Assembly: GCF_026151205.1 (NCBI RefSeq)
Contig: NC_087082.1
Span: 17,949,401-18,013,400, forward strand
Source of the DNA: Bolinopsis microptera
Lineage: Eukaryota > Ctenophora > Tentaculata > Lobata > Bolinopsidae
Length of the DNA stretch: 64,000 nt
Direction of reading: 5' to 3'
Shown: positions 28,893 to 64,000 of the stretch, in pieces
Layout: each line of letters starts with the position of its first letter
Position numbering within the stretch: the first letter of the stretch is position 1
Made by a program: the position numbers and the translations under genes
Notes under the pieces: generated by a model
Seen by the model: only the letters and a program-made list of their open reading frames with translations
Told to the model about the DNA's origin: nothing
The model's database searches: none

Positions 28893-29500
28893 ACACCCTC
28901 CATGTTTCGCCAAGAAAATGGAAATATAAGCACCTCCAATTCTCCAAATACTGATCAATATAAGCACCTCCAATTCACCAAATACTCAAATAGCTCTAGG
29001 TTGATATACTTTGATTCGAGAAACCGCGACCAACTGTAATGTTTATCCGTTCTGAATCTGATGAACAAGCAAGTGGTATGGTTAAATGATAGAAACGTTT
29101 ATAATTATTGTTGTTCGATGAAACAAGTAAAACAGCTAGCCAAGATAATAAACGGTACAAAATTACATTTAGGAATAGTCATTTACATTAGTCAACCAAC
29201 TTATTATATGTATAAATGTTTTTAAAGTCCCAGAGTCAAATGAGCGATATGACCTGTTTAAAGAATAATATCGCGGCTCTTATCGCCAACCGAAAATACT
29301 AAATCTTCTGACAATTTGGTTTTTGAAGCATACGGTAAGATTAAAAAAGACTTACTTTCAGCAAACTTCAAACCAATATATTATTATATTAGCAATTAAT
29401 CGTTATTCCCCAGTTCGTAGTACAAAATTTGTTAAAAGTGTAGGATATCAACATTATTAAACCTATCAAATCATGAAACTCATTAATTAAACTAATTAAA
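28893..29500. other. Non-genic stretch between LINE and DPP4-like copy 1
   Basis: AT-rich, with one small duplication (AAGCACCTCCAATTC at about 28930 and 28963). From 29436 onward it matches the reverse complement of the window end, so the arm may begin anywhere to the left; the other side is outside the window. Confidence 0.5.
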
Positions 29501-29506
29501 TTTATT
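29501..29506 (-). other. Polyadenylation signal of DPP4-like copy 1
   Basis: AATAAA on -, about 50 nt after the stop codon; the equivalent signal follows copy 2 at 63930-63935. Confidence 0.6.
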
Positions 29507-29554
29507 AAAGTTTGAGTTTTTCAGGTGAATTAGATTAGTAATTTATAAAGATTC

Positions 29555-32500
29555 CTAAAAGTCCGTTTTGTAGGTACCCAAATAGTCATCCTTCATGTTG
29601 AGAACGTCGAACAGCCAATCCCTCATCATTGTGTACATATGACGTCGGGTGTGCAGCCCCTTCAGGGAATGCGCTCGGTCTGAAAGTATGCACATATTAT
29701 CCTTGTAATTTAGCCTATTGTAACAAACTTATCTATAATGGTTAAGGTATTGTATTGTATGCCATTGTGAACTAGGTGGTATCCTGCAAGTTTTCCGTTT
29801 TCTGACTCGACATGGTGAATGCAATCCGAAGGTGATCGTAGCCGTTACGGAAGACTATAAGTTCTTCATTTTCCTATAATTAATGATACAGAACGATAAC
29901 ATGTAAACCCCAGAAGTTTCCAGTATCGTTATGATTTATGAATCGGTACACTGATTGAGCTCGGTTTCACAAGACTTTATAGAACAAAGTAATGGTTAAA
30001 GTAAGAGTGCTGAAATTTGTCCACTATGCTGCTAATCAACAAGCTGGGCAAGGTTGCAGATTGAAGCTTCTGCACTTTGAGTCAAGCTTCAAGCTGCACT
30101 AGCTTCAGAACAAATTGCTGATTTAGTGGCAAATCATATTTCCAACGACTGACGATCATGTGTTCGTGCGCAATGCGCATAGTTTCACGAACATCCTTCC
30201 TTGCAGGCGATTAATTCAACTTATGTTAATTGTGGCGGGGCATCAAAGCGTACAATTTTTGAGCGATAATCTAGCTGCTACCACCAACATACGTTGCACT
30301 TTAACCAAGGTTGTTAAATACGTCAAATTTTCGTGAAAGAATACGACGTATTCGGTTCTAATAAAGAATACGTCGTAATACGCCGTAATACGGTAATTTC
30401 TATGGATTGTTAAATACGTCCACGAATACGCCATAATACGCCGTAATACGCTGATTTGTCAAAATTAAACATTACAGCTGCGCGCTACCCTCATCATTGA
30501 TCATGCATTAAAGGAGTGCAGTTATACATGATAACTTAAATTTGTAATCAAATTTCATGGATAATCCGATAAGCAAACAATTTTTTGCGCGCACGACACA
30601 CCTTTTCGTAATACGTCAATTTTCGAGGATTAATACGTATTCGTATTCCAATACGTATTCCCTCCTAATACGTATTTAACAACCTTGACTTTAACTCTTT
30701 AAGCAGTCCGGCTTATAATCCTGGATTGCAACTGCAAATTCGCAATTATTGCTGATGGGCTTGATAATTTCTGGGACTGAAAGTGGCCATCAAGTTACCG
30801 AGAAGGAGGGTAACGTGGTGGCGATCAAGTAATTTAACGGGAGGGTTATGTCATTTATTACAGAATCCTTGTAAATCCAACTTCCAGTACCGTGTAATTG
30901 GGTAAAAATAAGAGGATGACGTTAACCTTCAAGTTCAGAAAAATGAGAAGTTGTACCCATAATCACGGCTAAGTACTTATGCACTTGAACTAAAGTAGTT
31001 TTAAAATGATAAATTAATAAACTAACCAGTGTAAGCATGCATCCTGAACTGAATATCGTTCTCTACTAGCTCGAAAGCAAGACGAGCCGCGTTGGTGTAA
31101 TGCACGTTGTCATCGGCGGTACCGTGTATCAGGAGATAGTTGGTACCCGTGAAGTTAGCTGCCTCGTGTAGACAGTCACCCTCATCGTACACCTTGAGAG
31201 GTTCAGTTATAAGCGGGTCCTTAGTAGCTAGGTCGCAGTTTAGAGCTATTTGGTATTATCTAACTAACCTTGGTAGGTCGCAGTTTAGAGCTATTTGGTA
31301 ATAGTTTACATTGATTTTAGATAAAGAGGCTTAATGTAATTGCAAGATATCCAGTGGGCATTGTTCAGACACCATCACCAGTTACAGACCAGACCACATA
31401 CCTTGTTGGTTGCAGGAAGACCCATGTATCTCTCAGTGTAGATAGTATCATAGAACCTGAAACTAGAAACCGGAGCAACAGCTATAGCAGCCTGCACTAC
31501 CTTCCTCCCACTTCCTGCCACCTTAGAGGACAGAAAACCTGAAAAACAGGAGATTTTCATGTGACAGATGTGATTTTGTAGCTTCATCTTAATAACTTGC
31601 TACTAATGCTTGTAAGTCTGTAGCATTGCAGGAATCGTTTTGCTCTGCTTTAGCAAAGGCCGAATATGATTCAGATTTGTAATCAATAAGGTGACTATTA
31701 GTTATGAGATCCATTTTGCAAATGGCTCCGAGTTGCATTTGACGTAAAATCATTTAACTATGCGCCAAACGTGAGAAGAATTTCTGAACTCTAATAATCT
31801 CACGAAACAGCTATATTAGCAAATTTATATTAGCCGGATTTAATGCCAAATGTAATGCAGGATGAAAATAAAGACTTCCTAAATCGATTAGATATCGTAA
31901 TGGCAATAGTTTAGTTAATTGCTTAACAGAACTGCTACAATACTTTAGAAGGTTACCCGATCTCAGAGTCGCGACAGTACCTACCTCCGTAAGACCAGCC
32001 CCAGATAGCCATCCTGGCATCGTCCACGTAATGGTACTGACTGATCCTCTCCAGGAAGTCTAGTGTGTCTTCCACTTCCGTCACTCCGAACTTTCTGGGA
32101 GGAAACTTTAGGTTAGGGGTTCCGGATTGGTTGGCCGGTAGAACCAGACAATGTTTACTCACAATATTACATAATTATATTGGCTATTAAAAAATCCACA
32201 CAAGATCAAATGTTATATAATTAATTGTTAATCACATTGATCAGAATCTGGTGGTGATATTACTTCCTAAATAACATGTATTTCTCAATGAAGTCAGAAT
32301 CTAATCTAACCAACTTCAAATAAAGTTTTATGAAATTATCAACATACTGTAATATAATTAATCGGGATTTATTCTGCTGATCCATATTCGGAAGACCCTA
32401 ATCATGGTAAAATACAGCAGTTCATGTATCACCTGTAGAGTGGGAACCTGAAGTCGTCCCCTCGGCCTATAGTACCTCGTACATCCACGTGGTAAACAAG

Positions 32501-35500
32501 GAAACTCGGCTTGTCAGGATCACCGTTAGCTAAATAGTTGTGGAAGTCTTTCCTTTGGTCTCCGTACGGGAAGTAGTCTCTGACATTCCCCGAATCTGGA
32601 CCCCCTGTCATATGATATTTTTAGCTTTAATCTATATCATCCCACTGCTCAGAAACATTGATATTCTTACTTCCTCAGCCGAACCTTTTAGACGCCCGGT
32701 AATTAACTGGCAGACATACCATAAACATAAACCAATACTGGGTATCGTTTAGTGCTGTTTTCATCAAAGTCTGGGGGAGAGATTCTCTGAACGTTAATGT
32801 CAAATCCTCCAATGCGTTCTGTCATATATTCCCTCTTGGGCAGGCTGAAGGTTCGCAGCATCATTTCTACATCGTAATTGGATTCCAAGACCTAGAAAAG
32901 AACGTTTTTTTATAGTTATGGACCTGATAAAATAATTATAAGCCATTCTAGTTCCTCTAAGCATCCTATTTCTTTCATTCAATATACATTTACGTCCGAT
33001 ACATATTCATATTAATTTTTCATTCAAAGCCTAAGCCAAGGTAACAAACGACTGAATAAAATAAAAACAACTCACATTTATCCACGGGGAGTCGACCTCC
33101 TTGAGCTGAACGTAAGGGGTAACAGGGCCGGCACAGGAGAGACGGTACATGGTCATGTCAGCACTGAAGGAGGCTCCCCCATACCCACAATACCCGTCAC
33201 ATGACAGACACGTGCTCTGAGGATAGGAGTCTTGCTACAAATCAAATTGTTTTCTTCTCGCCGATTAGAAAAACCAGTGGCAGTTCAATATTTACCACCA
33301 CAATTGCCAGTCAATTTGATGAGTACAAACCACCAATAATACACATTATACATTATAATATACATTATACATTATCACTAACCTCAGCAGTTACAATGTT
33401 CAGCTGGAAGACGTGTCTGTACATCTGTCCCCCATAACTTGCATAGTAGAACCTGTTTTATGGTTAGAAATTATTCACTGTTTTTAAGATTAGTTTTAGG
33501 CAGTGACTAAGTTATAACCATACAAACTTGTGATTTTACACTTCATAAATTGAGTTGATAATCATATTTATTATGACTTGATCATACATGACTCTTGAAA
33601 AAAAGGAACAATATTAACCTAAAAAGAGCAGTTTCCCTTGGTCGTATTTTCGGAATCATCAGACAACACTAAACGTATAAACAATCTAACTTACAAATAT
33701 TTCTTCTCTGCGGTGTTTATCGTACCGTACACGCTCAGCACATCAAATAACCCAGAGGTTAGGAACTTTCTGGACCAAGTACCATCTTCTTCCTTCGTGA
33801 AGAGACAAACATGTTTGAAGTTGCCCTCTATTCCTTGGTTGCTTGGTAGGAGGGTTGCGAAACTGTTTAACCCATCAAAGTACCTGTCAGGAGATGCAGA
33901 TATATGGTTTGTATAATTCGTTCTGAAGAATGATTATCTCAGATACCACTACCAGCATATCTATAAGATCAGAGCATAAGTGTACAGCTATAGCCAAGAA
34001 GACTAGATGCCTTTATTCAAAGAAATTGTTCACTGGTTGTCTTTTTCACATTGTTTGCATTTGGTGACGAAATTTCTAACATCTTACAAAAAGGTATATA
34101 AGAAAAAAGCTTATGATGATCAAAACCAGATCAAAGGCTTCTTATAAAATCCTCAAAAAAGGTTCCCTTACCAATGAGGAGTTTTCCACCAATCAAGCCA
34201 TCCTTCCTCGTGGCTGTCCTCGCCGAATATTTTCGTACAGCTGGTATCTGCCCTTGCTGCATTACACTGAAATAAATCGGTTAAGGAATGTTATCCAAAG
34301 TTCAAAAAGAAAACCTTGGAATCGAAAGAATGCAGATAAAAGGCATCAAGTTGAATGATATCTATGTACCTGATAAAATGAGATCTTTGTTTGTAGTCTG
34401 TTCCACCACTCACACACGACTGTATTCCTGTGGATGTGTTTTGTTTTAACACACTTCTGGTATCCTTATTATTAATTAGTCATTGTTATTCATCATATTT
34501 TATGTTAAGAAGTTAATTCTTTATTGACTTTTCTTCAAGCCCCAATCGAGTTAATTACCACTAATGTGTCATACGAAAGTAGGATTCAAAAATTTCACAA
34601 ACGCTTAAAAAATAATTTAAACGGCAACTAACTCGTTAGCCCAAGAAACAGTATAAAGGTAGTGCTCTCCCCAATCCAGAACCTCTTGTGGGGTGGGTAT
34701 CAGATACGCCTCCATATCACCCTCAGGGTCCTGTAGATCTGCCATGTAGGTCTGGATGGTAGGGTTCTTGTATCCAGCCTGGGTAGAGGGGGATCAGATG
34801 TGCAATGTCTTCTCCTCACCAGTTATTTGTGTGAGGTCGTGAAGTATTCCAGTTCGATTTCTCGCGCTATCAATAATCCTATCACGATAGTAAAATTACC
34901 TTGGGATACTCATAGTCTAATATAGTTGCGTAGTCCTCTTTTCCGTAGATAGGGAAGCGTACGTGTTGAACTCCTTTAGCGTTAGTTTTACTGAAGGCTA
35001 TAAACCGACTGTCGGGTGACGGATAATTACTGTAATAACTCGCTACAACCTCCTCTGAAAGAAAGTGTGTTGTTAAGTTATAGGTAAGTTTTATTCTTAT
35101 ATTTGTTTCCCGTGATAACGAAGCAATCTACGTTCACAGATTCTGGTGTCACTTTCAATTTGTTGGGGTCACTTGACAGATCAATTTAGCATCCACTGTG
35201 TGAAGTGCGAACCTTAGGAACCTGATTAGGGAACCTTAGGGAACCTAACTTACCTTCGTAGACCCAGTCGGGGACTCCGTTAAAGATAACGTTATCCTCC
35301 CCATCAGATGTATGTCTAGTGTACGCCCCATCCCCAGTTGCCATGGGATCTGTCTTGGAGTACACATCAAACTCTGCTACTATCACCTGAGTTGATTCTG
35401 ATCATGAATCACCAAGACTGGCAAGCAATTTAGGATCGAATGGTTGGAAAATGTAGGTTAAAAGTCATTGCTGATCGCCAAAGGTCCGTTTAACTTAAGG

Positions 35501-36973
35501 TTTAACTTAAAGTCAGTTCTGTTTTCAACCTACCACAGTGTGACCAGTTTTAGTAAAACCACAATATTGGACATTGTTGGTTCCGGTCGGATCAACAGTT
35601 ACGTTTGGACGAGACCCATTGACAGATTCGTTATTTCTGGAAAAAATTAGAATGGTAAAATCTTATTTTCAAATAATACCGTTGATAGCAAGATGAAGAA
35701 AACATAAATTGAACACAATATATACACTGTACAGTAAAAGTAATCTTTATTATAAATTAATCTACTCACAAGTCTATAAGCCAGTAATTAGCATAAAAAG
35801 AATGCCGATATTTTGCTTTTGTTATTTGATAAAGTATAGCGTATTGCTCATCAGGTGATACTTCGAAGTCCATTCCAAACTGTGGATAAGATACTGATAG
35901 ATGCTGGAAGCTTATAGGATTACTTAGAACATTAAACTATTAACAAATGAAACATGCAGTTGAGCTATACTGAAGGACTACGAACCAGTTTCAAGCTTGT
36001 CGCCCTGATAACATATTGAGCTCAGCTCGGTAAATGTATTTATTTGCAGCTGCGAAAATAATGTAAAACGTATGAGATTTAAAAAGGAATTTGATTAAAG
36101 ACCATTTTTAGAAATTAATGTATTTTCTGTTAGATTGTGCACAAGAGGATAAAACTATAAACATCTAATATCAAAATGATCTTTAAAAATGATTACCAAT
36201 TCTCTGATATCAAAGTATTTTTTTAATTTCTCCCCAGTCTTCACATTGATACTCCAAAAACCATCCTCAGTTGCTTCATAAGCATCGTGACCTGAAATCC
36301 ACAAAAGTATATTAAAATCCTGCTTCTATGAGACAATTAAAGAATTAAAGTAAACATTATTGTAACACGTGATAAATCAACTTGAATTGCATTGCAAGGT
36401 TGCCTCGAAATGAGTCCTTTGGTTCGTAAATTTCAAGCACGGAGTCATCTTAAAAATATATATAAACCCCATCCCTTTATATGGACATGAAGGTTGTCTC
36501 ACCTGACTTGGCCCAGTGTATGCCTGCATACTTTGGAGACAGCGTCAAGTTAAAGACATCTTCCCACTGGAGGTATTTCGGGCCGCTTTCCTCAGCGTCT
36601 CCTAAATTCAGCTCTGTGCAGCCTGAAATAGAGGGTTTTTTGCTGAAATAGTAAAATAAACTATGAGTGTAATGACCCTTAAAAAGGATTTTGATTTAAC
36701 GGTGATATAATTACAAAGGCATCTTTTTAACGACGTCAAAATTAAACTAATACAAAAAATCACGCACAAAAATCACGTGCTAACAGTCAGCCCTTAGTCA
36801 CGTGCTAACAGTCAGCCCTTAGTCACGTGCTAACAGTCAGCCCTTAGTCACGTGCTAACAGTCAGCCCTTAGTCACGTGCTAACAGTCAGCCCTTAGTCG
36901 GCTTCTTACCTTCGCAGAGAGCAGATGAACCAAGAAACAGGGCTTGAAGCGTGAGGCACGCTAACAGAAGCAT
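29555..36973 (-). CDS. Dipeptidyl peptidase 4-like serine protease, copy 1
   Basis: Twenty exons on -, 5' to 3': 36910-36973, 36503-36622, 36197-36291, 35986-36049, 35770-35893, 35534-35636, 35254-35386, 34900-35054, 34633-34778, 34370-34427, 34172-34266, 33695-33883, 33383-33452, 33076-33216, 32720-32891, 32433-32604, 31985-32094, 31402-31538, 31027-31219, 29555-29679. They sum to 2,466 nt (821 residues), and every exon has the same length as in copy 2. S9B family: an N-terminal beta-propeller with the DWVYEEEVV dipeptide-anchoring motif, then an alpha/beta-hydrolase with GWSYGG (Ser668), HGTADDNVH (Asp752/753) and DRAHS (His784). The enzyme would remove X-Pro/X-Ala dipeptides. The start gives a signal peptide (MLLLACLTLQALFLG), suggesting secretion. 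An in-frame ATG further upstream (37108) exists in this copy only. Confidence 0.93.
30306..30687. mobile_element. hAT-type MITE, 382 bp, arm 1 only
   Basis: Ends CAAGGTTGTTAAATACGT and its inverted copy, flanked by the exact 8-bp duplication ACTTTAAC (30298-30305 and 30688-30695). Arm 2 has the empty site, one ACTTTAAC, near 63065. An 8-bp duplication with CA-starting termini fits the hAT superfamily. The interior is rich in AATACGxxGTAATACG palindromes and has no ORF. It lies in the last intron of DPP4-like copy 1. Confidence 0.9.
31230..31310. repeat. Intronic 45-bp repeat, 2 units (arm 1)
   Basis: Unit containing GGTCGCAGTTTAGAGCTATT, adjacent to the exon 19 acceptor. Arm 2 has three units at about 62410-62530, so it is a length polymorphism between arms. 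Confidence 0.75.
36773..36899. repeat. Intron 1 25-bp VNTR, 5 units (arm 1)
   Basis: Five units of CACGTGCTAACAGTCAGCCC plus TTAGT. Arm 2 carries three at about 56795-56870. The spacer-less direct repeats rule out a CRISPR. Confidence 0.9.
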
Positions 36974-37371
36974 AACCAGTACTACTACTGTTCTCTTTGA
37001 TCCTGATCCGATACTTAAGCAGGGGAGGTGCTGGTTAGAAACGAGCTTATAACCAGAATATTCGGGGAACACAAAACAGTTCAACACTTTCTGGTCGGTA
37101 TGATACACAAAGTTATTGAATAAAGTTATTGAATAAAGTTATTGAATAAAGGTGGGTAAATTAAAGTTTTACTGTATAATCAGGTGTAAAAAGAAAAAGG
37201 AGAAGAATTGATTGTACAGATGTATGAGAGTATGAGGTTGACAATGACCAGGACGTACAACTATTAACTAATTGTACGTATAATTAACTGTACTTTTAGA
37301 ACTATAACTAGACCCCACAATGTACGAAAGGGTAAACGGTTTCTTATTCACCTATTTACGTTTCTGCCACC

Positions 37372-37402
<31 letters not shown>

Positions 37403-38698
37403 TTTTTTCTAAATTCCCTTAGTAGAGAAGGGCATAAGGAAACCGGAAAATCATCTAGAAAGTTCGAAAATTTGACAGTTAAACACAATAAATGGTCATC
37501 TAGGATACGTGAGAGCATGAAGTTCAGGTTCTCTAAGTCTAAGTGTTCGGATCGAATAACCACATTTATATACGGTTTAGAATACAAAACGATGTCCGAA
37601 TAATAATATAGTATCATTTAACCTAAACGACTAAACACTAAACAGGTAGTCGTGTACAATGTACATTTGAAAATTCAGTTTTTGTCGCCATGCTCAGATC
37701 CAGATGGAATGCTTTGTTTGCCGAATTACCGCGAGCGTGTGGATATACCAATTTTCTGACAATAGTCTATCAGTCATTCAGAATTTTGACTTTGAGAGAT
37801 GATAATGTATAAATCTTATTGTGTTCGAGTTTAACAAACCATCAACCCTCATGGTCATTATAGCTGGTGATCTCTTCATACTTTAAGTTCTACTTACCAT
37901 CTAAATATGTCCAAAGAAGGACGACCCATGATGCAGATCTAACACTCTAGCAGGGAGTCCCTACATCTCTCCACTCCACATTTTACAACAGATCCCTCCG
38001 CAACCCACAGAAGTGCACAGAGCAAGTACGATCAGCAAATCATGGCGAAAGCTCGAGATTGAGTACATTTGACAGTGATGAGTGAATGCCTTAATAAGTT
38101 AATAACGGTCAATGCCTATTGCCTTCATAAGCGAATCCTCATGGGATACAGCTATTATATATCACATATATTATATGTAAATTAGTATATGCATGTATAA
38201 TGTATATAATTATATACATTACGTATATACTGTAAGTGTAAAGACGTAGTGATATTTGAGTAGTACAACTCAGCTTTTATTGAAGTACTTTTGACGTAAT
38301 AATGAGCTGCCAGTATCATTATCATCCTCTTTAAATGAGCTGCGAACAGATTTACATAGTTATATATTGCGCATATTTTTATTTGGAATAAATTCTTCAA
38401 ATGAATTTAAAGAATTATGAAATATTTGAGGCAACGAAAAGCTCGCAATTAATTTTGCTTTAAAAGTACGTTAAATGCGTGGTGCTTTAAATATTACCAG
38501 CAGGAAAAAGTACTAGCAGGAATCCGTCTAACCCTAAAGACAAAGTGGTGTCAAGACTCAAGAGACTAAAATTATTATTACCTATTTAATTCGCGTTTAA
38601 GACACCACTGGTTGGGCACTAAAACTTTTATTCCTTGGTTAATTTTTAATTTTTTCATGCTGATTTGAGGGCCATTAAAGCTGCCATTAAAGCTCAGA
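36974..38698. other. Upstream flank of DPP4-like copy 1
   Basis: Presumed promoter and 5' UTR side of the gene, conserved in arm 2 (about 53.0-56.7 kb). It contains a C run at about 37374-37402 (G run at about 56324-56350 in arm 2), three TTATTGAATAAAG repeats at 37112-37150, and a TA-rich stretch at 38150-38235 that is the empty site for the arm 2 insertion. No TATA box or start site can be assigned with confidence. Confidence 0.5.
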
Positions 38699-39243
38699 GT
38701 AAGGAGTAAGGAGTAAGGAGTAAGAAGTAAGAAGTAAGGAGTAAGGAGTAAGGACTAGAAGTAAGGAGTAAGGAGTAAGGAGTAAGGAGTAAGGAGTAAG
38801 GAGTAAGGAGTATGGACTAGGAGTAAGGAGTAAGGAGTAAGGAGTAAGGAGTAAGGAGTAAGGAGTAAGGAGTAAGGAGTAAGGAGTAAGGAGTAAGGAG
38901 TAAGGAGTAAGGAGTAAGGAGTAAGGAGTAAGGAGTAAGGAGTAAGGAGTAAGGAGTAAATAGTAAGGAGTAAGGAGTAAGGAGTAAGGAGTAAGGAGTA
39001 AGGAGTATGGACTAGGAGTAAGGAGTAAGGAGTAAGGAGTAAGGAGTAAGGAGTAAGGAGTATGGACTAGGAGTAAGGAGTAAGGAGTAAGGAGTAAGGA
39101 GTAAGGAGTAAGGAGTAAGGAGTAAGGAGTAAGGAGTAAGGAGTAAGGAGTAAGGAGTAAGGAGTAAGGAGTAAGGAGTAAGGAGTAAGGAGTAAGGAGT
39201 AAGGAGTAAGGAGTAAGGAGTAAGGAGTAAGGAGTAAGGAGTA
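38699..39243. repeat. (AGTAAGG)n heptamer satellite, arm 1
   Basis: About 75 units of a 7-bp repeat with a recurrent interruption (TATGGACTAGG) near 38750, 38812, 39006 and 39061. In arm 2 the array is shorter (about 28 units) and uninterrupted. Because 7 is not a multiple of 3, all frames cycle through the same short peptide, giving spurious ORFs. Confidence 0.95.
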
Positions 39244-39359
39244 AAAAAAAGGGGTAATTTGGGCGAGCGAATTAGTGGGAGCACCACGCCGCGGGCCTGC
39301 CACGCACCGACGTGAGACAAAAGGCTTCCTTGTAGTTGTAACACTAACTCATAAAGTCA

Positions 39360-39706
39360 TAAGGTGCCATCTACTTAGGATGTCCGCCGCAAAATTACAA
39401 ATTTTCAGACCACCCCCCCCCCCCCCCCCCCCCCCTGTCCGGATGTGTCCGAATTTTCAAAATCACCACCTCCCCCGGACGTCCGGATTTCCAGCTACTT
39501 TTAAGAGCACAAATAAAATTTACTCAAATTCATTGTAAATAAAATTTAAAGAATTGAAATAAATGAACCTTTTTCGTTAATTTTGCCAAAATTTCCGGAC
39601 GTCCAGATTTTCAGAAACCACCCCCCTCCCCCTGTCCGGATTTGTCCGAAATACCAAAACCATCCCCCTCCCTATATGCCGGACGTCCTAAGTAGATGGC
39701 CCCTAA
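39360..39706. mobile_element. MITE with CCATCTACTTAGG termini, full-length form (arm 1)
   Basis: Inverted ends GCCATCTACTTAGGACGTCC / complement flank about 346 bp with a poly-C tract (39412-39435) and repeated GTCCGGAxxTxTCxGA motifs. The arm 2 copy (52555-52695) is about 140 bp, lacking the middle, so it is an internal deletion of the same insertion. Confidence 0.8.
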
Positions 39707-40957
39707 AGATAATAGGCAATAGTTTCGTCAACGCTATACATTAATACAGCAAGAAATACCTTACCTGTAATTTAGATAAAGTAGAACTAGAACCTCAATT
39801 TTTGCGGTTTTTTGTAAAGAAAATAGTACAACAAAATACGTCATAAGGTCAGGAATTGGTTTCTCTGGCCTGGCCAAAAAGATGGAAACAAAATGGGAGA
39901 CGCGGGGTGAGTCATGTGGAACCGAGTGGTTTCTGTAATAAAGTTGAGAAATAAAGTAATTAGTCAGGTTGAAACATATCTGAAATAGTTGAGACAAACA
40001 GTACGGGAGCCTTATGGGAGCCAAATATTAAACGGTCAGAGCGCTGATTTTATCAATCATAGGATTAAAATCTTTGGTATAAAATCTTGAATCCGCATAT
40101 ATATCAAATCAGCGCTTATAAATTATAAAATTCGGGTCACATTTAAAGCAACAGTTTATTATATAGTATCAGACAAATCATAACGCGTAATAATATATAA
40201 ATGGACATATCGATAATTTCCCATTCAAAGACAGACAATCCAGCATTCCATATGCTGCAACTCAAAATATCAATAAGCATTGCTAGATAACAAATAACCT
40301 AAACGGAACCTTCGAGTCCGACCCAGAATTCAGCCCAAATATTGTGGTATTGAATTTCACAGGAAAATATATTTGACTGGCCTGGTTAAAATTTGGACTG
40401 GAAGGAAATTCGATGAAACACGATTCGGCAGAGAGCTAATTTAATGAAATGATAAGCGAATACCCTGCAAGTTTGATCGAGCTAAAAAAGAAATTACCTT
40501 ACCAACAACCTCATTACCGGGTAACCAGAGCTCTGTTTCACATGTTCTTATTAAGAAACAAAGCCCGAAGACCAGATCATACCTACCAGATTGCAGATTG
40601 CAGAACCTTTATTATCTAATCAGTATCAGGTATGGATCAGCGTGGCGGAAATAATATAATCCTTAGTATATCGTCACGTTTTGAATCTCAGGTAGGATTT
40701 CAACAAACAAAACCAGGTATTCATGATAAGAAATCTCCGCCCTCTCTTCAATTAAAAAACAATGAGAGAATATTAATGAGTTTAAATTTGACTTAGAGAA
40801 AATTAGACAATTATCACAATCCTGTACTCAGTAGAGAACACTAAGTCTAACAGAAAAAAACAAAGAAAGGATGCGGACTCAATTAACGGGACTCATGCGG
40901 AACTCATGCGGGATGCCGCAATATATTACGAATGTAAGTGTAACAGCGTTACTATAT
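39707..40957. other. Conserved non-genic block shared by both arms
   Basis: Matches 51.3-52.55 kb in arm 2 closely. An 87-codon ORF on - at 39761-40024 is kept in arm 2 (52227-52490) with one visible residue change, but such conservation is expected from recent duplication, and no family is recognised. Confidence 0.45.
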
Positions 40958-40958
40958 A

Positions 40959-51073: not shown

Positions 51074-51074
51074 T

Positions 51075-52990: not shown

Positions 52991-53602
52991 TGAGCTTTAA
53001 TGGCCCTCAAATCAGCATGAAAAAATTAAAAATTAACCAAGGAATAAAAGTTTTAGTGCCCAACCAGTGGTGTCTTAAACTCGAATTAAATAGGTAATAA
53101 TAATTTTAGTCTCTTGAGTCTTGACACCACTTTGTCTTTAGGGTTAGACGGATTTAAAGCACCACGCATTTAACGTACTTTTAAAGCAAAATTGCGAGCT
53201 TTTCGTTGCCTCAAATATTTCATAATTCTTTAAATTTATTCCAAATAAAAAATATGCGCAATATACTAAAACTATGTAAATCTGTTCCCAGCTCATTTAA
53301 ATAGGATGATAATGATAGTGGCAGCTCATTATTACGTCAAAAGTACTTCAATAAAAGCTGAGTTGTACTACTCAAATATCACTACGTCTATACACTTACA
53401 GTGTATACACGTAATGACATATAATTATATACATTATACATGCATATACTAATCACAGTGCTGGCAAGCACGACCGTTGCATTTATTGTGGGTATACTAT
53501 GTTCCCCATTTACTATTATACCCCCTTTACTATTATACCCCCTTTACTATTATACCCCTTTTACTATTATACCCCCTTTGGTACACGTTACAAGCCTCTT
53601 TT

Positions 53603-53666
53603 GTGCACGCGAAGCGTGCACTCCGGCCGGAGGCGGCGGCCGAAGGCCGCCGCCTCCGGCAGGAGT
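53603..53666. repeat. GC-rich double hairpin with GAA loops
   Basis: Hairpin 1: GTGCACGC-GAA-GCGTGCAC (53603-53621). Hairpin 2: a 22-bp stem (53620-53641 with 53645-53666, one mismatch) closed by GAA at 53642-53644, core GGAGGCGGCGGCC. The two share two bases. It is strikingly GC-rich against AT-rich surroundings and resembles the double-hairpin elements known from some mitochondrial genomes. Confidence 0.85.
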
Positions 53667-55065
53667 TTTCCAGGCATTAAGACTCATCGGAAGTCGTTCA
53701 GCAGATTTATTTTTAGTTCAAAACATTCTAATTTGATGTCAAAGAGGACAGGAATAAGAATAGTTATGTTCAGAATTTTAAGAAATTTGCATAAAATACT
53801 CGCCAGCACTGTTATACGAAATTCGGTAAAAAACCCAAAATCGCCATATTCAGGTGCCCTAAAAACCATGTTAAAATTGAGTTAGAGATCTGAAATTTTT
53901 CAGGGCGTCTAGACGTTGACCAAATTGACTGCAAAAAAAGTTTCAGGTTTCAGGAGCATCGGGAAATGGGTTTTCTAGAACCCCTGTTTTACGACAGATT
54001 GTCGGGACATATACATACAGATATACAGATATATATATTCAGGGATAGACGCTTTGCCAGTCAATTGTAGCCTGTATTTAAGTGTCCATAGATTCAAAAG
54101 TATAAAAGATACAGCCATTTCCGACCACAGGTCTTGCAAATAATTGTTTACACTTTAGTTTACATTGTATAAAAAATTTATTTGACGTCATAAACACCCC
54201 TTGATGACGTCATCAAGTTAACCGTTTTTAAAACTTGATTTTTGACAAAGTAATAACTTTTAAAATTAATTTTAACCCATTAAGGAGTAATTTTATTCAA
54301 AATCTGAGGAAATTTTCATCTTAGATAATTGTTCAAGCATTCTGAAAATCTACCGGAAAGTTTTTCTAGCTTGCTCCTTCATAAAGATATTTGTCATTAA
54401 AGTTTGTGCTTTTTTGAAGAATTATTTTATAAAAACGTCAATTTTGCGATTTAGTATTCTTTGGTGTTGGGCCATGCCTTGGGTTGTGGAGCTCAGTTCT
54501 GCTTCCTATAGGTATAAATTGTGCATTAGGCTAGTTTTAAAGTTGAAAATCGAAAAGATGCACACGTGGGGACACGCCCAAATTGATAGAAAATTGCTAA
54601 AATCACTGAAAATTGCTGTTTTCGTCATTTTCTGTCAACTTTAGAGTGCCGTTGTGATTACAGTTCTTCTTGAAATACTTTGAAACTTTGCATGCTTATC
54701 AAGCTATATATAAAACAATTACATGCAAAAATTTACGGCGATTCAATATTGGATGCGCATGCAACGTCCGCTCAAAGTTTGCACGTGCGAAAGGTGAGAA
54801 TTTTGCTCATTCGTGATTTCCAACAAATTCTGCTTTGCCACGACAGTTTAATGTCATTATATATGAATTTAATGTCAACTTGAATGAGTATTAAGTGGTA
54901 TATTCAGTCAGTGATGGACCGATATGCTTACCTAAACACAAGGAAATGTTTTTAAAGGAAAAATTTCGAAATCGTTGAAACTTCCTCCTTATTATAATGA
55001 AGATATCAGTTTATATTTCGACTTTATAAAGTACCCTGACATTATAATCAAAAAGAGATGATATT

Positions 55066-55569
55066 TTACCAAAACCCATAATCATGGGTAGAGTGGACCG
55101 CTGCCAGTGGCTCTCTTTCCCAAACAAAAGGAAATGATATTAATTTGATTGACCGTTCTCAAATGCAAAATGATACCGAGAATGAAATCGGTCGCTCGCT
55201 TTTCCCATTCATTTACAATTGTAATAGATTAAGAAGAACTACCCAAAGGCAGCTGTACTCGGCAATAAAGATTCAATAAACTTCAGCTAATGCAATAAGT
55301 GATAACTACCACCCTTACCCCGAAATACTAGGTATCGACCCGAACGCAACCCAAAGAGATTTTTACAGCATCTGATTGACATGTGATCAATCGAAAATTA
55401 TTACAATTCGTAAGCCGTGAATGAATGGGAAAAGCGAGCGACCGATTTCATTCTCGGTATCATTTTGCATTTGAGAACGGTCAATCAAATTAATATCATT
55501 TCCTTTTGTTTGGGAAAGAGAGCCACTGGCAGCGGTCCACTCTACCCATGATTATGGGTTTTGGTAAAA
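55066..55569. repeat. 150-bp inverted repeat inside the arm 2 insertion
   Basis: 55066-55218 and 55421-55569 are near-exact reverse complements (outer ends TTTTACCAAAACCCATAATC) around about 200 bp. It may be a foldback element in its own right or a duplicated Helitron end. Confidence 0.85.
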
Positions 55570-56720
55570 TTTACATATAATATATGTGATAAATAATAGC
55601 TGTATCCCATGAGGATTCGCTTATGAAGGCATTGACCGTTATTAAGGCATTCACTGTCAAATGTACTCAATCTCGAGCTTTCACAATGATTTGCTGATCG
55701 TACTTGCTCTGTTCACTTCTGTGGGTTGTGGAGGGATCTGTTGTAAAATGTGGAGTGGAGAGATGTAGGGACTCCCTGCTAGAGTGTTAGATCTGCATTA
55801 TGGGTCGTCCTTCTTTGAACATAATTAGATGGTAAGTAGAACTAAAAGTATGAAGAGATCACCAGCTATAATGACCGTGAGGGTTGATGGTTTGTTAAAC
55901 TCGAACACAATAAGATTTATACATTATCATCTCTCAAAGTCAAAATTCTGTATGACATAGACTATTGTCAGAAAATTTGTATATCACACGCTCGCGGTAA
56001 TTCGGCAAACAAAGCATTCCATCTGGATCTGAGCATGGCGACAAAAACTGAATTTTCAAATGTACATTGTACACGACTACCTGTTTAGTGTTTAGTCGTT
56101 TAGGTTAAATGATACTATATTATTATTCGGACATCGTTTTGTATTCTAAACCGTATATAAATGTGGTTATTCGATCCGAACACTTAGACTTAGAGAACCT
56201 GAACTTCATGCTCTCACGTATCCTAGATGACCATTTATTGTGTTTAACTGTCAAATTTTCGAACTTTCTAGATGATTTTCCGGTTTCCCTTATGCCCTTC
56301 TCTAATATGGGAATTTAGAAAACGGGGGGGAGGGGGGGGGGGGGGGGGGGGTTGGCAGAAACGTAAATAAGTGAATAAGAAACCGTTTACCCTCGTACAT
56401 TGTGGGATCTAGTTATAGTTCTAAAAGTACAGTTAATTATACGTACAATTAGTTAATAGTTGTACGTCCTGGTCATTGTCAACCTCATACTCTCATACAT
56501 CTGTACAATCAATTCTTCTCCTTTTTGTTTTTACACCTGATTATACAGTAAAACTTTAATTTACCCACCTTTATTCAATAACTTTGTGTATCATACCGAC
56601 CAGAAAGTGTTGAACTGTTTTGTGTTCCCCGAATATTCTGGTTATAAGCTCGTTTCTAACCAGCACCTTCCCTGCTAAAGTATCGGATCAGGATCAAAGA
56701 GAACAGTAGTAGTACTGGTT

Positions 56721-59700
56721 ATGCTTCTGTTAGTGTGCCTGACGCTTCAAGCCCTGTTTCTTGGTTCATCTGCTCTCTGCGAAGGTAAGAAGCCGACTTA
56801 GGGCTGACTGTTAGCACGTGACTTAGGGCTGACTGTTAGCACGTGACTAAGGGCTGACTGTTAGCACGTGATTTTTGTGCTGTTGAGCATTATTTTGTAT
56901 TAGTTTAATTTTGACATCGTTAAAAAGATGCCTTTGTAATTATATCACCGTTAAATCAAAATCCTTTTTAAGGGTCATTACACTCATAGTTTATTTTACT
57001 ATTTCAGCAAAAACCCTCTATTTCAAAAACCCTCTATTTCAGGCTGCACAGAGCTGAATTTAGGAGACGCTGAAGAAAGCGGCCCGAAATACCTCCAGTG
57101 GGAAGATGTCTTTAACTTGACGCTCTCTCCAAAGTATGCAGGCATACACTGGGCCAAATCAGGTGAGACAACCTTCATGTCCATAGAAAGGGATGGGGTT
57201 TATATATATTTTTAAGATGACTCCGTGCTTGAAATTTACGAACCAAAGGACTCATTTCGAGGCAACCTTGCAATGCAATTCAAGTTGATTCATCACGTGT
57301 TACAATAATGTTTACTTTAATTGTCTCATAGAAGCAGGATTTTAATATAGTTTTGTGGATTTCAGGTCACGATGCTTATGAAGCAACTGAGGATGGTTTT
57401 TGGAGTATCAATGTGAAGACTGGGGAGAAATTAAAAAAGTACTTTGATATCAGAGAATTGGTAATCATTTTTAAAGATTATTTTGATATTAGATGTTTAT
57501 AGTTTTATCCTCTTGTGCACAATCTAACAGAAAATAAATTTATTTCTGAAAATGGTCTTTAATCAAATTCCTTTTTAAATCTCATACGTTTTACATTATT
57601 TTCGCAGCTGCAAATTAATACATTTACCGAGCTGAGCTCAATATGTTATCAGGGCGACAAGCTTGAAACTGGTTCGTAGTCCCTCAGTATACTGTATAGC
57701 CCAACTGCACGTTTCATTTGTTAATAGTTTAATGTTCTAAGTAATCCTATAAGCTTCCAGCATCTATCAGTTTCTTATCCACAGTTTGGAATGGACTTCG
57801 AAGTATCACCAGACGAGCAATACGCTATACTTTATCAAATAACAAAAGCAAAATATCGGCATTCTTTTTATGCTAATTACTGGCTTATAGACTTGTGAGT
57901 AGATTAATTTATAATAAAGATTACTTTTACTGTACATTGTATATATTGTGTTCAATCTATGTTTTGTTCATCTTGCTATCAACGGTTTTATTTGAAAATA
58001 AGATTTTACAATTCTAATTTTTTTCCAGAAATAACGAATCTGTCAATGGGTCTCGTCCAAACGTAACTGTTGATCCGACCGGAACCAACAATGTCCAATA
58101 TTGTGGTTTCACTAAAACTGGTCACACAGTGGTAAGTTGAAAACAGAACTAACTATAAGTTAAACCTTGAGTTAAACGGACCTTTGGCGATCAGCAATGA
58201 CTTTTAACCTACATTTTCCAACCATTCGATCCTAAATTGCTTGCCAGTCTTGGTGATTCATGATCAGAATCAACTCAGGTGATAGTAGCAGAGTTTGATG
58301 TGTACTCCAAGACAGATCCCATGGCAACAGGGGATGGGGCGTACACTAGACATACATCTGATGGGGAGGATAACGTTATCTTTAACGGAGTCCCTGACTG
58401 GGTCTACGAAGGTAAGTTATGTTCCCTAAGGTTCCCTAATCAGGTTCCTAAGGTTCACACCTCACAGAGTGGATGCTAAATTGATCTGTCAAGTGACCCC
58501 AACAAATTGAAAGTGACACCAGAATCTGTGAACGTAGATTGCTTCGTTATCACGGGAAGCAAATATAGGAATAAAACTTACCTATAACTTAACAACACAC
58601 TATTATTTCAGAGGAGGTTGTAGCGAGTTATTACAGTAATTATCCGTCACCCGACAGTCGGTTTATAGCCTTCAGTAAAACTAACGCTAAAGGAGTTCAA
58701 CACGTACGCTTCCCTATCTACGGAAAAGAGGACTACGCAACTATATTAGACTATGAGTATCCCAAGGTAATTTTACTATCGTGATAGGATTATCGATAGC
58801 GCGAGAAATCGAACTGGAATATTTCACGACCTCACACAAATAACTGGTGATGAGAAGACATTGCACATCTGATCCCCCTCTACCCAGGCTGGATACAAGA
58901 ACCCTACCATCCAGACCTACATGGCAGATCTACAGGACCCTGAGGGTGATATGGAGGCGTATCTGATACCCACCCCACAAGAGGTTCTGGATTGGGGAGA
59001 GCACTACCTTTACACTGTTTCTTGGGCTAACGAGTAAGTTTATATTTCCGTTTAAATTATTTTTTTAAGCGTTTGTGAAATTTTTGAATCCTACTTTCGT
59101 ATGACACATTAGTGTTAATTAACTCGATTGGGGCTTGAAGAAAAGTCAATAAAGAATTAACTTCTTAACATGAAATATGATGAATAACAATGACTAATTA
59201 ATAATAAGGATACCAGAAGTGTGTTAAAACAAAACACATCCACAGGAATACAGTCGTGTGTGAGTGGTGGAACAGACTACAAACAAAGATCTCATTTTAT
59301 CAGGTACATAGATATCATTCAACTTGATGCCTTTTATCTGCATTCTTTCGATTCCAAGGTTTTCTTTTTGAACTTTGGATAACATTCCTTAACCGATTTA
59401 TTTCAGTGTAATGCAGCAAGGGCAGATACCAGCTGTACGAAAATATTCGGCGAGGACAGCCACGAGGAGGGATGGCTGGATTGGTGGAAAACTCCTCATT
59501 GGTGAGGGAACCTGTTTTGAGGATTTTATAAGAAGCCTTTGATCTGGTTTTGATCATCATAAGCTTTTTTTCCAATTAGTTATTATATACCTTTTTATAA
59601 GATGGTAGAAATTTCGTCACCAAATGCAAACAATGTGAAAAAGACAACCAGTGAACAATTTCTTTGAATAAAGGCATCTAGTTTTCTTGGCTATAGCTGT

Positions 59701-62700
59701 ACACTTATGCTCTGATCTTATAGATATGCTGGTAGTGGTATCTGAGATAATCATTCTTTAGAACGAATTATACAAACCATATATCTGCATCTCCTGACAG
59801 GTACTTTGATGGGTTAAACAGTTTCGCAACCCTCCTACCAAGCAACCAAGGAATAGAGGGCAACTTCAAACATGTTTGTCTCTTCACGAAGGAAGAAGAT
59901 GGTACTTGGTCCAGAAAGTTCCTAACCTCTGGGTTATTTGATGTGCTGAGCGTGTACGGTACGATAAACACCGCAGAGAAGAAATATTTGTAAGTTAGAT
60001 TGTTTATACGTTAAGTATTTTCTGATGTTTCCGTAAATACGACCAAGGGAAACTGCTCTTTTTAGGTTAAGATTGTTCCTTTTTTTTCAAGAGTCATGTA
60101 TGATCAAGTCATAATAATTATGATTATCAACTCAATTTATGAAGTGTAAAATCACAAGTTTGTATGGTTATAACTTAGCCACTGTTTAAAACTAATCTTA
60201 AAAACAGTGAATAATTTCTAACCATAAAACAGGTTCTACTATGCAAGTTATGGTGGACAGATGTACAGACACGTCTTCCAGCTGAACATTGTAACTGCTG
60301 AGGTTAGTGATAATGTATAATGTATATTATAATGTATAATGTGTATTACTGGGGGTTTGTACTCATCAAATTGACTGGCAATTGTGGTGGTAAATATTGA
60401 ACTGCCACTGGTTTTTCTAATTGGCGAGAATAAAACCATTTAAGACCTTGACTGAGAAAACAATTTGATTTGTAGCAAGACTCCTATATCCTCAGAGCAC
60501 GTGTCTGTCATGTGACGGGTATTGTGGGTATGGGGGAGCCTCCTTCAGTGCTGACATGACCATGTACCGTCTCTCCTGTGCCGGCCCTGTTACCCCTTAC
60601 GTTCAGCTCAAGGAGGTCGACTCCCCGTGGATAAATGTGAGTTGTTCTTATTTTATTCAGTCGCTTGTATCTTTGGCTTAAGCTTTGAATGAAAAATTAA
60701 TATGAATATGTATCGGACGTAAATGTATATTGAATGAAAGAAATAGGATGCTTAGAGGAACTAGAATGGCTTATAATTATTTTATCAGGTCCATAACTAT
60801 AAAAAACTTTCTTTTCTAGGTCTTGGAATCCAATTACGATGTAGAAATGATGCTGCGAACCTTCAGCCTGCCCAAGAGGGAATATATGACAGAACGCATT
60901 GGAGGATTTGACATTAACGTTCAGAGAATCTCTCCCCCAGACTTTGATGAAAACAGCACTAAACGATACCCAGTTTTGGTTTATGTTTATGGTATGTCTG
61001 CCAGTTAATTACCGGGCGTCTAAAAGGTTCGGCTGAGGAAGTAAGAATATCAATGTTTCTGAGCAGTGGGATGATATAGATTAAAGCTAAAAATATCATA
61101 TTACAGGTGGTCCAGATTCGGGGAATGTCAGAGACTACTTCCCGTACGGAGACCAAAGGAAAGACTTCCACAACTATTTAGCCAACGGTGATCCTGACAA
61201 GCCGAGTTTCCTTGTTTACCACGTGGATGTACGAGGTACTATAGGCCGAGGGGACGACTTCAGGTTCCCACTCTACAGGTGATACATGAACTGCTGTATT
61301 TTACCATGATTAGGGTCTTCCGAATAAGGATCAGCAGAATAAATCCCGATTGATTTTATTACAGTATGTTGATAATTTCATAGAACTTTATTTGAAGTTG
61401 GTTAGATTAGATTCTGACTTCATTGAGAAATACATGTTATTTAGGAAGTAATATCACCACCAGATTCTGATCAATGTGAATAACAATTAATTTTATAACA
61501 TTTGATCTTGTGTGGATTTTTTAATAGCCAATATAATTATGTAATATTGTGAGTAAACATTGTCTGGTTCTACCAACCAACAATCCGGAATCCCTAACCT
61601 AAAGTTGCCTCCCAGAAAGTTCGGGGTGACGGAAGTGGAAGACACACTAGACTTCCTGGAGAGGATCAGTCAGTACCATTACGTGGACGATGCCAGGATG
61701 GCTATCTGGGGCTGGTCTTACGGAGGTAGGTACTGTCGCGACTCTGAGATCGGGTAACCTTCTAAAGTATTGTAGGAGTTCCGTTAAGTAATTAACTAAA
61801 CTATTGCTATTACGATATCTAATCGATTTAGGAAGTCTTTATTTTCATCCTGCATTACATTTGGCATTAAATCCGGCTAATATAAATTTGCTAATATAGC
61901 TGTTTCGTGAGATTATCAGAGTTCAGAAATTCTTCTCACGTTTGGCGCATAGTTAAATGATTTTACGTCAAATGCAACTCGGAGCCATTTGCAAAATGGA
62001 TCTCATAACTAATAGTCACCTTATTGATTACAAATCTGAATCATATTCGTCCTTAATGCTAAAGCAGAGCAAAACGATTCCTGCAATGGTACAGACTTAC
62101 AAGCATTAGTAGCAAGTTATTAAGATAAAGCTACAAAATCACATCTGTCACATGAAAATCTCCTGTTTTTCAGGTTTTCTGTCCTCTAAGGTGGCAGGAA
62201 GTGGGAGGAAGGTAGTGCAGGCTGCTATAGCTGTTGCTCCGGTTTCTAGTTTCAGGTTCTATGATACTATCTACACTGAGAGATACATGGGTCTTCCTGC
62301 AACCAACAAGGTATGTGGTCTGGTCTGTAACTGGTGATGGTGTCTGGACAATGCCCACTGGATATCTTGCAAATACATAAAGCTTCTTTATCTAAAATCA
62401 ATGTAAACTATTACCAAATAGCTCTAAACTGCGACCTACCAAGGTTAGTTAGATAATACCAAATAGCTCTAAACTGCGACCTACCAAGGTTAGTTAGATA
62501 ATACCAAATAGCTCTAAACTGCGACCTAGCTACTAAGGACCCGCTTATAACTGAACTTCTCAAGGTGTACGATGAGGGTGACTGTCTCCACGAGGCAGCT
62601 AACTTCACGGGTACCAACTATCTCCTGATACACGGTACCGCCGATGACAACGTGCATTACACCAACGCGGCTCGTCTTGCTTTCGAGCTAGTAGAGAACG

Positions 62701-63881
62701 ATATTCAGTTCAGGATGCACGCTTACACTGGTTAGTTTATTAACTTATCATTTTAAAACTACTTTAGTTCAAGTGCATAAGTACTTAGCCGTGATTATGG
62801 GTACAACTTCTCAGTTTTCTGAACTTGAAGGTTAACGTCATCCTCTTATTTTTACCCAATTACACGGTACTGGAAGTTGGATTTACAAGGATTCTGTAAT
62901 AAATGACATAACCCTCCCGTTAAATTACTTGATCGCCACCACGTTACCCTCCTTCTCGGTAACTTGATGGCCACTTTCAGTCCCAGAAATTATCAAGCCC
63001 ACCAGCAATAATTGCAAATTTGCAGTTGCAATCCAGGATTATAAGCCGGACTGCTTAAAGAGTTAAAGTGCAACGCATGTTGGTGGTAGCAGCTAGATTA
63101 TCAAAAATTGTACGCTTCGATGCCCCGCCACAATTAACATAAGTTGAATTAATCGCCTGCAAGGAAGGATGTTCGTGAAACTATGCGCATTGCGCACGAA
63201 CACATGATCGTGAAACTATGCGCATTGCGCACGAACACATGTGAAACTATGCGCATTGCGCACGAACACATGATCGTCAGTCGTTGGAAATATGATTTGC
63301 CACTAAATCAGCAATTTGTTCTGAAGCTAGTGCAGCTTGAAGCTTGACTCAAAGTGCAAAAGCTTCAATCTGCAACCTTGCCCAGCTTGTTGATTAGCAG
63401 CATAGTGGACAAATTTCTGCACTCTTACTTTAACCATTACTTTATTCTATAAAGTCTTGTGAAATCAAGCTCAGTCAGTGTACCGATTCATAATTCATAA
63501 CGATACTGGAAACTTCTGGGGTTTACACTTTACATGTTATCGTTCTGTATCATTAATTATAGGAAAATGAAGAACTTATAGTCTTCCGTAACGGCTACGA
63601 TCACCTTCGGATTGCATTCACCATGTCGAGTCAGAAAACGGAAAACTTGCAGGATACCACCTAGTTCACAATGGCATACAATACAATACCTTAACCGTTA
63701 TAGATAAGTTTGTTACAATAGGCTAAATTACAAGGATAATATGTGCATACTTTCAGACCGAGCGCATTCCCTGAAGGGGCTGCACACCCGACGTCATATG
63801 TACACAATGATGAGGGATTGGCTGTTCGACGTTCTCAACATGAAGGATGACTATTTGGGTACCTACAAAACAGACTTTTAG
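56721..63881 (+). CDS. Dipeptidyl peptidase 4-like serine protease, copy 2
   Basis: Twenty exons on +: 56721-56784, 57043-57162, 57366-57460, 57608-57671, 57771-57894, 58029-58131, 58279-58411, 58612-58766, 58888-59033, 59246-59303, 59407-59501, 59801-59989, 60233-60302, 60496-60636, 60820-60991, 61107-61278, 61616-61725, 62174-62310, 62538-62730, 63757-63881. All phases agree and the product is 821 residues. Signal peptide MLLLVCLTLQALFLGSSALC; beta-propeller with DWVYEEEVV (Glu234-236, binding the substrate N-terminus); TCLSCDGYCGYGG cysteine region; hydrolase domain with FEVED-like TEVEDTLDF, GWSYGG (Ser668; the last Gly codon is split by an intron), TERYMGLP, HGTADDNVH and His784. All catalytic residues are present, so an active X-Pro dipeptidase is likely. 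For exon 14 the acceptor before AGCACGTG is chosen because the earlier AG breaks the frame. An upstream in-frame stop in this copy supports the chosen start. Confidence 0.94.
56795..56870. repeat. Intron 1 25-bp VNTR, 3 units (arm 2)
   Basis: Reverse complement of the arm 1 VNTR (ACTAAGGGCTGACTGTTAGC), with two units fewer. Confidence 0.85.
62410..62530. repeat. Intronic 45-bp repeat, 3 units (arm 2)
   Basis: Each unit ends in CCAAGGTTAGTTAGATAATA, so an AAG|G acceptor-like sequence recurs just before the true exon 19 acceptor. Arm 1 has two units. Confidence 0.75.
63150..63275. repeat. Last-intron repeat, 3 units (arm 2)
   Basis: GTGAAACTATGCGCATTGCG followed by CACGAACACATG is present three times; arm 1 has one copy near 30160-30195. 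ATGCGCATTGCGCA includes a small palindrome. Confidence 0.8.
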
Positions 63882-63929
63882 GAATCTTTATAAATTACTA
63901 ATCTAATTCACCTGAAAAACTCAAATTTT

Positions 63930-63935
63930 AATAAA
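63930..63935 (+). other. Polyadenylation signal of DPP4-like copy 2
   Basis: AATAAA about 50 nt after the stop codon, matching the arm 1 signal. Confidence 0.6.
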
Positions 63936-64000
63936 TTTAATTAGTTTAATTAATGAGTTTCATGATTTGATAGGTTTAATAATGTTGATATCCTACACTT

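What the first reader, a model, noticed from the sequence alone, without database searches (positions are those of the whole stretch)
29436..64000. Giant palindrome: over 14.5 kb arms around a 3.4 kb spacer, each with an intact protease gene
The arms match base for base in order, with a few percent divergence plus discrete insertions. Coding differences I can see are mostly synonymous (for example two in exon 11, one in exon 9), so both genes have stayed functional. It could be a real inverted duplication kept by gene conversion, or two haplotypes fused tail to tail; allele-like divergence and many TE presence/absence differences keep the second option open.
Basis: partly seen in the sequence, partly recalled or inferred. 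Interest (0 to 1): 0.8.

Follow-up and report, generated by a model that had tools for sequence, protein, structure and literature searches.

The report
Two gene copies fused by assembly
In what is probably a comb-jelly genome assembly, a 58-kb stretch reads as a giant mirror-image duplication with two protease genes, but it is most likely the two parental copies of one locus joined tail to tail by the assembly software, so it should not be counted as a real palindrome or gene duplication without read-level proof.

Summary
The inverted repeat is real in the sequence and larger than reported. The left arm spans window 12785-44019. The right arm runs from 47376 to 5,645 bases past the window end (scaffold G000:C11). 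The spacer is 3.36 kb. Both arms lie in one 57,978-base contig between two 100-N gaps; arms plus spacer fill 98% of it. Over 17,388 aligned columns the arms differ by 1.79% substitutions, plus one-sided insertions and repeat-copy-number changes. Each arm carries an apparently intact DPP4/FAP-type peptidase gene (20 synonymous, 2 nonsynonymous differences in 778 codons). Assembly statistics fit Bolinopsis microptera, a diploid ctenophore assembled with wtdbg2, HiRise, TGS-GapCloser and Purge Haplotigs, which does not remove duplicates within one contig. The divergence is close to the 2% SNP heterozygosity published for another ctenophore, Hormiphora. Two genome searches found no third full-length copy. 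The left arm is cut by its contig end inside a poly-G tract, so no outer duplication breakpoint can be read. I judge this an inverted false 'heterotype' duplication, two alleles joined tail to tail (about 0.78). A genuine inverted duplication (about 0.2) is not excluded: no N gap lies between the arms, and no reads could be inspected.

The parts
12652..12751 (.). 100-N scaffold gap; left end of the contig that holds the whole palindrome (the right gap is at 70730-70829 in window numbering, outside the window)
12752..12825 (+). poly-G tract (74 G) on which the left contig end is cut; its mirror in the right arm is a poly-C tract ending at 69645
12785..44019 (+). left arm of the inverted repeat (31.2 kb including one-sided insertions)
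13073..19493 (+). left-only 6.4-kb insertion; part of it is 72-73% identical to a reverse-transcriptase-like element in the right-hand neighbouring contig, and it holds a 2.1-kb direct repeat whose copies differ by 142 single-base indels, which looks like poorly polished long-read sequence (inference)
24579..28956 (+). left-only non-LTR retrotransposon (endonuclease + reverse transcriptase, ORF 25638-28835, 1066 aa) bounded by a 5-bp GTTAA duplication; the right arm holds the empty site
29588..36973 (-). left copy of the DPP4/FAP-type dipeptidyl peptidase gene (18 coding blocks plus C-terminal exon)
40959..41728 (.). left-only element with 18-bp terminal inverted repeats; absent from the right arm
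43559..43730 (.). left-only MITE-like element with terminal inverted repeats; absent from the right arm
44020..47375 (.). spacer, not self-complementary beyond matches of 20-27 bp; contains a dispersed repeat (about 44503-45018) and a 15-bp x 5 tandem repeat at its right edge (47301-47375)
47376..64000 (-). right arm of the inverted repeat; continues outside the window to 69645
48584..50212 (+). 45-bp minisatellite, about 36 copies in the right arm against about 1.5 copies in the left arm
53454..55567 (.). right-only 2.1-kb insertion, nature not determined
56721..63848 (+). right copy of the DPP4/FAP-type dipeptidyl peptidase gene

Best explanation
The palindrome is an inverted false 'heterotype' duplication. 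The two arms are the two parental haplotypes of a single locus in a heterozygous diploid ctenophore (most likely Bolinopsis microptera), joined tail to tail in one contig. The loop is sequence that only one haplotype's end contributes, because one allele's contig or read reaches further than the other before the false join. Because both alleles sit in one contig, haplotig purging could not remove either. Shown here: one contig between two gaps, allele-sized divergence, one-sided insertions, two full-length copies in the assembly, no readable outer breakpoint. Inferred: that the arms are alleles, where the false join lies (47366-47376 next to the 15-bp tandem repeat, or about 44020), and which software step made it.
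For: Both arms and spacer fill 98% of one 57,978-bp contig with 100-N gaps at both ends. Four 100-N gaps fall in the 124 kb examined, against 21.1 kb of Ns published for the whole 265-Mb assembly, i.e. roughly one gap per 1.25 Mb if all are 100 N. Left-arm homology runs to the contig's end, which breaks inside a poly-G tract, so no outer breakpoint is visible on that side. The 1,084 bp beyond the right arm have no other copy in the genome apart from matches of under 90 bp to a short repeat inside them. Two queries (7,001 and 2,903 bp) found two full-length copies, the arms themselves, and otherwise only short matches or dispersed repeats (each scored its best 40 candidates). Substitution divergence is 1.79%, pS 3.7% and pN 0.11%; the published SNP heterozygosity of Hormiphora californensis is 2%, or about 3.2% with indels (PMC8527503 passages). 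Divergence is overdispersed, 6 to 29 substitutions per kb, as alleles with varying coalescence times would be. There are filled/empty insertion sites and tandem-repeat length differences. [quoted passage not shown]
Against: There is no N gap between the arms, whereas false duplications are most often separated by one; an unsupported gap fill or a chimeric join has to be assumed. The spacer is not self-complementary, so a simple fold-back read is not the cause. No reads, depth or Hi-C could be examined. This species' own heterozygosity was not found (search, passages of one of its three papers), and my attempt at an in-genome yardstick from unplaced scaffolds was uninformative. Two full copies are also what a real duplication would give. 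Species identity is inferred from assembly statistics, one of which disagrees: 232 sequences here against 346 scaffolds published.
Confidence: 0.78

Rival explanations
1. A genuine inverted segmental duplication at least 22-31 kb long, fixed or polymorphic in the species, with two functional divergently transcribed DPP4-type genes, diverging without much gene conversion.
For: The arms are joined without Ns across a 3.36-kb spacer that is not self-complementary. Both gene copies look intact and differ almost only at synonymous sites (20 synonymous, 2 nonsynonymous). A real large palindrome would also make an assembly break up locally, as seen.
Against: Its divergence would have to match allelic heterozygosity by coincidence. 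No outer breakpoint is visible: left homology runs to the contig end. The whole structure is confined to one small contig between gaps. Divergence varies several-fold along the arms, though unrecognised coding sequence may explain part of that.
Confidence: 0.17
2. A real palindrome homogenised by arm-to-arm gene conversion, as in primate sex-chromosome ampliconic palindromes (that comparison is recalled).
For: Divergence is patchy, 0.6-2.9% per kb, and the six longer outer blocks are more alike than the two spacer-proximal blocks (0.7-1.9% against 3.0 and 4.3%), a gradient that conversion could give.
Against: At 1.8% divergence, with a 4.4-kb retrotransposon, a 6.4-kb insertion, a 2.1-kb insertion and smaller elements each in one arm only, conversion is not keeping the arms alike.
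Confidence: 0.03
3. A palindromic fold-back artefact of a single molecule (missed sequencing adapter or amplification chimera).
For: Such reads are a known source of inverted joins (recalled, not from a call).
Against: The arms differ by 1.8% and by kilobase-sized insertions and are therefore not the same molecule; the loop is not self-complementary.
Confidence: 0.02

Closest known systems
False heterotype duplication in genome assemblies (PMC9516828; passages seen)
   Same: Two allele-like copies on one scaffold of a haploid reference from a heterozygous diploid, gaps at the edges of the region, a false extra gene, and a purge tool that does not act within a contig.
   Different: Here the second copy is inverted and joined without an N gap. 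In that paper's main text the words 'orientation' and 'inverted' do not occur, so this geometry does not seem to be described there.
Ampliconic palindromes of mammalian sex chromosomes (recalled, no call)
   Same: Large inverted repeat, spacer, functional gene in each arm.
   Different: Those arms are typically over 99.9% identical through gene conversion (recalled). Here the arms differ by 1.8% with several one-sided insertions, on an ordinary large scaffold of a hermaphroditic animal (if the species is right).
DPP4/FAP family (peptidase S9B) genes
   Same: Pfam DPPIV_N + Peptidase_S9, WGWSYGG motif; best PDB matches are DPP4, then FAP.
   Different: From a ctenophore (inferred); nothing unusual noted.

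Membership tests
False heterotype duplication | Copies differ at the level of the individual's heterozygosity | tested here: inconclusive
   1.79% substitutions against 2% SNP heterozygosity in another ctenophore, Hormiphora; the value for this individual was not found
False heterotype duplication | Haploid (half) read depth on both copies | not testable with these tools
   no reads available
[quoted passage not shown]
   The N-gap form is tested and absent. The depth-gap form, which describes as arising from incorrect gap filling, needs reads. The pipeline included a gap closer
False heterotype duplication | No further copy of the locus in the haploid assembly | tested here: met
   two full-length copies only in two searches; does not by itself separate alleles from paralogues
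Gene-converted palindrome | Arms nearly identical through ongoing conversion | tested here: not met
   1.79% substitutions and several one-sided insertions
Genuine inverted segmental duplication | Outer breakpoints where homology stops inside continuous sequence | tested here: inconclusive
   No breakpoint could be observed: left homology ends at the contig end, and the right overhang has no left counterpart to compare
DPP4/FAP (S9B) peptidase | DPPIV N-terminal region and S9 catalytic domain with catalytic motifs | tested here: met
   Pfam hits to both domains on the right copy; motifs in both arms

The most novel reading that the evidence does not exclude
A genuine palindrome with arms of at least 22-31 kb on a ctenophore chromosome, holding two functional, divergently transcribed DPP4-type protease genes around a 3.4-kb spacer on their upstream side.
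Probability: 0.2. Interest if true: 0.4.

Novelty: not a real feature. Interest (0 to 1): 0.15.

Why it matters
If it is an artefact, as I think, a published reference counts one DPP4-type gene twice, and any palindrome or gene-family survey that uses it will be misled. The contig is also a useful example of an inverted false duplication that purging misses. As a by-product it gives about 17 kb of aligned allele pairs, with insertion polymorphisms. If it were real, it would be a large palindrome in an animal lineage where I know of none described (recalled; not searched for as such).

Tried and rejected
Fold-back of one molecule: rejected, since the arms differ by kilobase-sized insertions and the loop is not self-complementary.

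Gene-conversion palindrome: kept only as a weak rival.

Continuation of the arm in the neighbouring contigs: none found. The 1,084-bp right overhang has no inverted match in the flanks examined and no long match elsewhere in the genome.

Yardstick from unplaced scaffolds: 4-kb pieces of five unplaced scaffolds were fetched. Three of the five were searched; their matches were dominated by repeats, so they say nothing about haplotig divergence. The searches with the other two did not complete.

Species confirmation by 18S rRNA: not completed. Bolinopsis heterozygosity: 3 papers held the words. I saw passages of one (PMC12221973), with no value for Bolinopsis; the other two were seen in the listing only. 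A paper on Mnemiopsis populations (PMC13231562, passages) gave no number in the passages shown. Searches for print on inverted or palindromic haplotype contigs: no paper held all terms in two searches; two searches were read as listings only. A search for ctenophore and dipeptidyl peptidase gave 4 papers, seen as a listing, none on the topic by title or the abstract start shown. A promoter scan of 201 bases was uninformative. Two ORFs from the outer arms had no Pfam match.

The script stopped before checking L046 for gaps, so L046 was not examined; L045 has none.
Full report
WHAT IS THERE. The window lies on G000:C11:17949401-18013400, in a 264,652,675-bp assembly of 232 sequences; C11 is 20,825,282 bp long. 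Self-comparison of the window and its fetched flanks shows one chain of inverted blocks. The left arm is 12785-44019. The right arm is 47376 to 69645 in window numbering, so the last 5,645 bases lie outside the window in L009. The spacer is 44020-47375. The 12 blocks align 17,388 columns with 311 substitutions, 1.79%. The six longer blocks between 19570 and 40958 (737 to 7,615 alignment columns) differ by 0.7 to 1.9%. The other six are 9% at the extreme left end (294 columns), 0% (29 columns), 2.2% (233 columns), 8% (75 columns), and 3.0% and 4.3% beside the spacer (1,006 and 294 columns).

THE CONTIG. The structure sits in a single contig, 12752-70729 (57,978 bp), between 100-N gaps at 12652-12751 and 70730-70829. 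Arms plus spacer make up 98% of it. Two further gaps lie at -5616 and 99871, so four gaps occur in the 124 kb examined. The published assembly of Bolinopsis microptera has 21.1 kb of Ns in 265 Mb (table in PMC11797021, passages), roughly one gap per 1.25 Mb if all are 100 bases. The left arm is homologous to the right arm to the end of its contig, which breaks off inside a 74-base poly-G tract. The right arm's matching poly-C tract is followed by 1,084 bp that have no other copy in the genome beyond short matches to a repeat inside them. So the point where homology truly ends cannot be seen on the left, and the right flank cannot be compared with anything. The left contig end also looks like poorly polished long-read sequence: inside the 6.4-kb left-only insertion, two 2.1-kb direct repeats are 85% identical and differ by 142 single-base indels (116 of them missing bases in the outer copy) in 2,267 columns, and the edge block holds 13 indels of one or two bases in 294 columns. 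The ten other comparisons of the arms show 27 single-base indels in about 17,150 columns (all). That the left end is unpolished is an inference; two old copies of an element could also differ.

WHAT DIFFERS BETWEEN THE ARMS. Left-only: a non-LTR retrotransposon with endonuclease and reverse transcriptase domains (24579-28956), bounded by a 5-bp GTTAA duplication with the empty site in the right arm; the 6.4-kb insertion; a 770-bp element with 18-bp terminal inverted repeats; and a 172-bp MITE-like element. Right-only: a 2.1-kb insertion of unknown nature, a 656-bp stretch, and a 45-bp minisatellite expanded to about 36 copies. Other tandem repeats differ in copy number: the 7-bp repeat about 79 against 29 copies, the 25-bp repeat 5.1 against 3.1.

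THE GENE. Each arm holds a DPP4/FAP-type dipeptidyl peptidase gene, both transcribed away from the spacer. Eighteen coding blocks (778 codons compared, one codon with a gap set aside) show 20 synonymous and 2 nonsynonymous differences, pS 3.7% and pN 0.11%. The set-aside gap is a 2-bp indel just before a good acceptor (CTCAG|AGC) and most likely intronic; that splice site is my inference, and block ends elsewhere are by eye. Pfam finds DPPIV_N and Peptidase_S9 on the right-arm blocks. The nucleophile motif, the HGTADDNVH motif and the C-terminal exon occur in both arms. PDB sequence matches are best to DPP4, then FAP. No transcript evidence was available.

WHICH ORGANISM. Size 264.65 Mb, this scaffold's length of 20.83 Mb (published N50 20.8 Mb), window GC 39% (from the counts) and hits at megabase coordinates on C1-C13 fit B. 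microptera (265 Mb, 13 chromosomes, GC 38.5%). The sequence count does not (232 against 346), and no marker gene could be checked because the genome search stopped answering. The identification is an inference. The published pipeline is wtdbg2 contigs, HiRise scaffolding, TGS-GapCloser, Purge Haplotigs and Pilon, from a hermaphroditic animal whose k-mer spectrum is diploid (PMC10232365, passages).

ALLELES OR PARALOGUES. For alleles: 1.79% divergence is close to the 2% SNP heterozygosity (about 3.2% with indels) of another ctenophore, Hormiphora californensis (PMC8527503, passages). Divergence outside the listed coding blocks is overdispersed (264 substitutions in 14,776 columns; index 1.92 in 59 windows of 250 columns, reached by 1 of 5,000 shuffles; 6-29 per kb in 14 windows, reached by 0 of 5,000), as different coalescence times would give. 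For that count I left out columns left of 19494 and the 18 coding blocks, but not the C-terminal exon or any unrecognised gene, so part of the dispersion may be constraint. Two queries of 7,001 and 2,903 bp found two full-length copies genome-wide, the two arms themselves. A real duplication in a haploid reference would also give two, so this excludes only a third, separately assembled copy. The related Mnemiopsis leidyi project judged 127 of 129 unplaced scaffolds to be alternative haplotypes (PMC11797021, passages), so retained alleles do occur in such assemblies. Purge Haplotigs removes only duplicates on different contigs (PMC9516828, passages), which would explain why a fused pair survived. 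Against: there is no N gap between the arms, the spacer is not self-complementary and, apart from a dispersed repeat, the searched part of it (44500-46500) is found nowhere else, and no reads could be inspected.

HOW IT MOST LIKELY AROSE. Both alleles were carried as separate contig ends or graph paths and were joined tail to tail on the upstream side of the gene. The loop is the stretch by which one allele's sequence outran the other. That predicts a single false junction at one edge of the loop only. The right edge coincides with a 15-bp x 5 tandem repeat (47301-47375), a plausible place for a wrong join; at the left edge I saw no such feature. This step is inference. The means could be a chimeric read used for gap filling, or a wrong path in the assembly graph.

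VERDICT. The interpretation best supported is an assembly artefact, with a genuine inverted duplication left at about one in five.

Noticed in passing
window 5391-6678 and 7316-8606: A smaller inverted repeat, 1.29 kb arms at 99.4% identity around a 0.64-kb spacer, in the neighbouring contig.
   Followed up: no
window 9129-12651: Tandem array (copies offset by about 0.8 and 1.67 kb, 96-99% identical) with repeated open frames on the minus strand, running into the gap at 12652; probably why the neighbouring contig stops there.
   Followed up: no
window 62412-62528 (right arm) and about 31229-31303 (left arm): A 45-bp tandem repeat near an intron-exon border of the protease gene: about 2.6 copies in the right arm and one fewer in the left.
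   Followed up: partly
window 24579-28956: A non-LTR retrotransposon with a 1066-aa open frame (endonuclease and reverse transcriptase) and a GTTAA target-site duplication; present in one arm only, so probably young.
   Followed up: partly
L009, 72745-75051 in window numbering: Open frame of about 769 aa, reverse-transcriptase-like by eye, in the right-hand neighbouring contig; a relative of part of the left-only 6.4-kb insertion.
   Followed up: no
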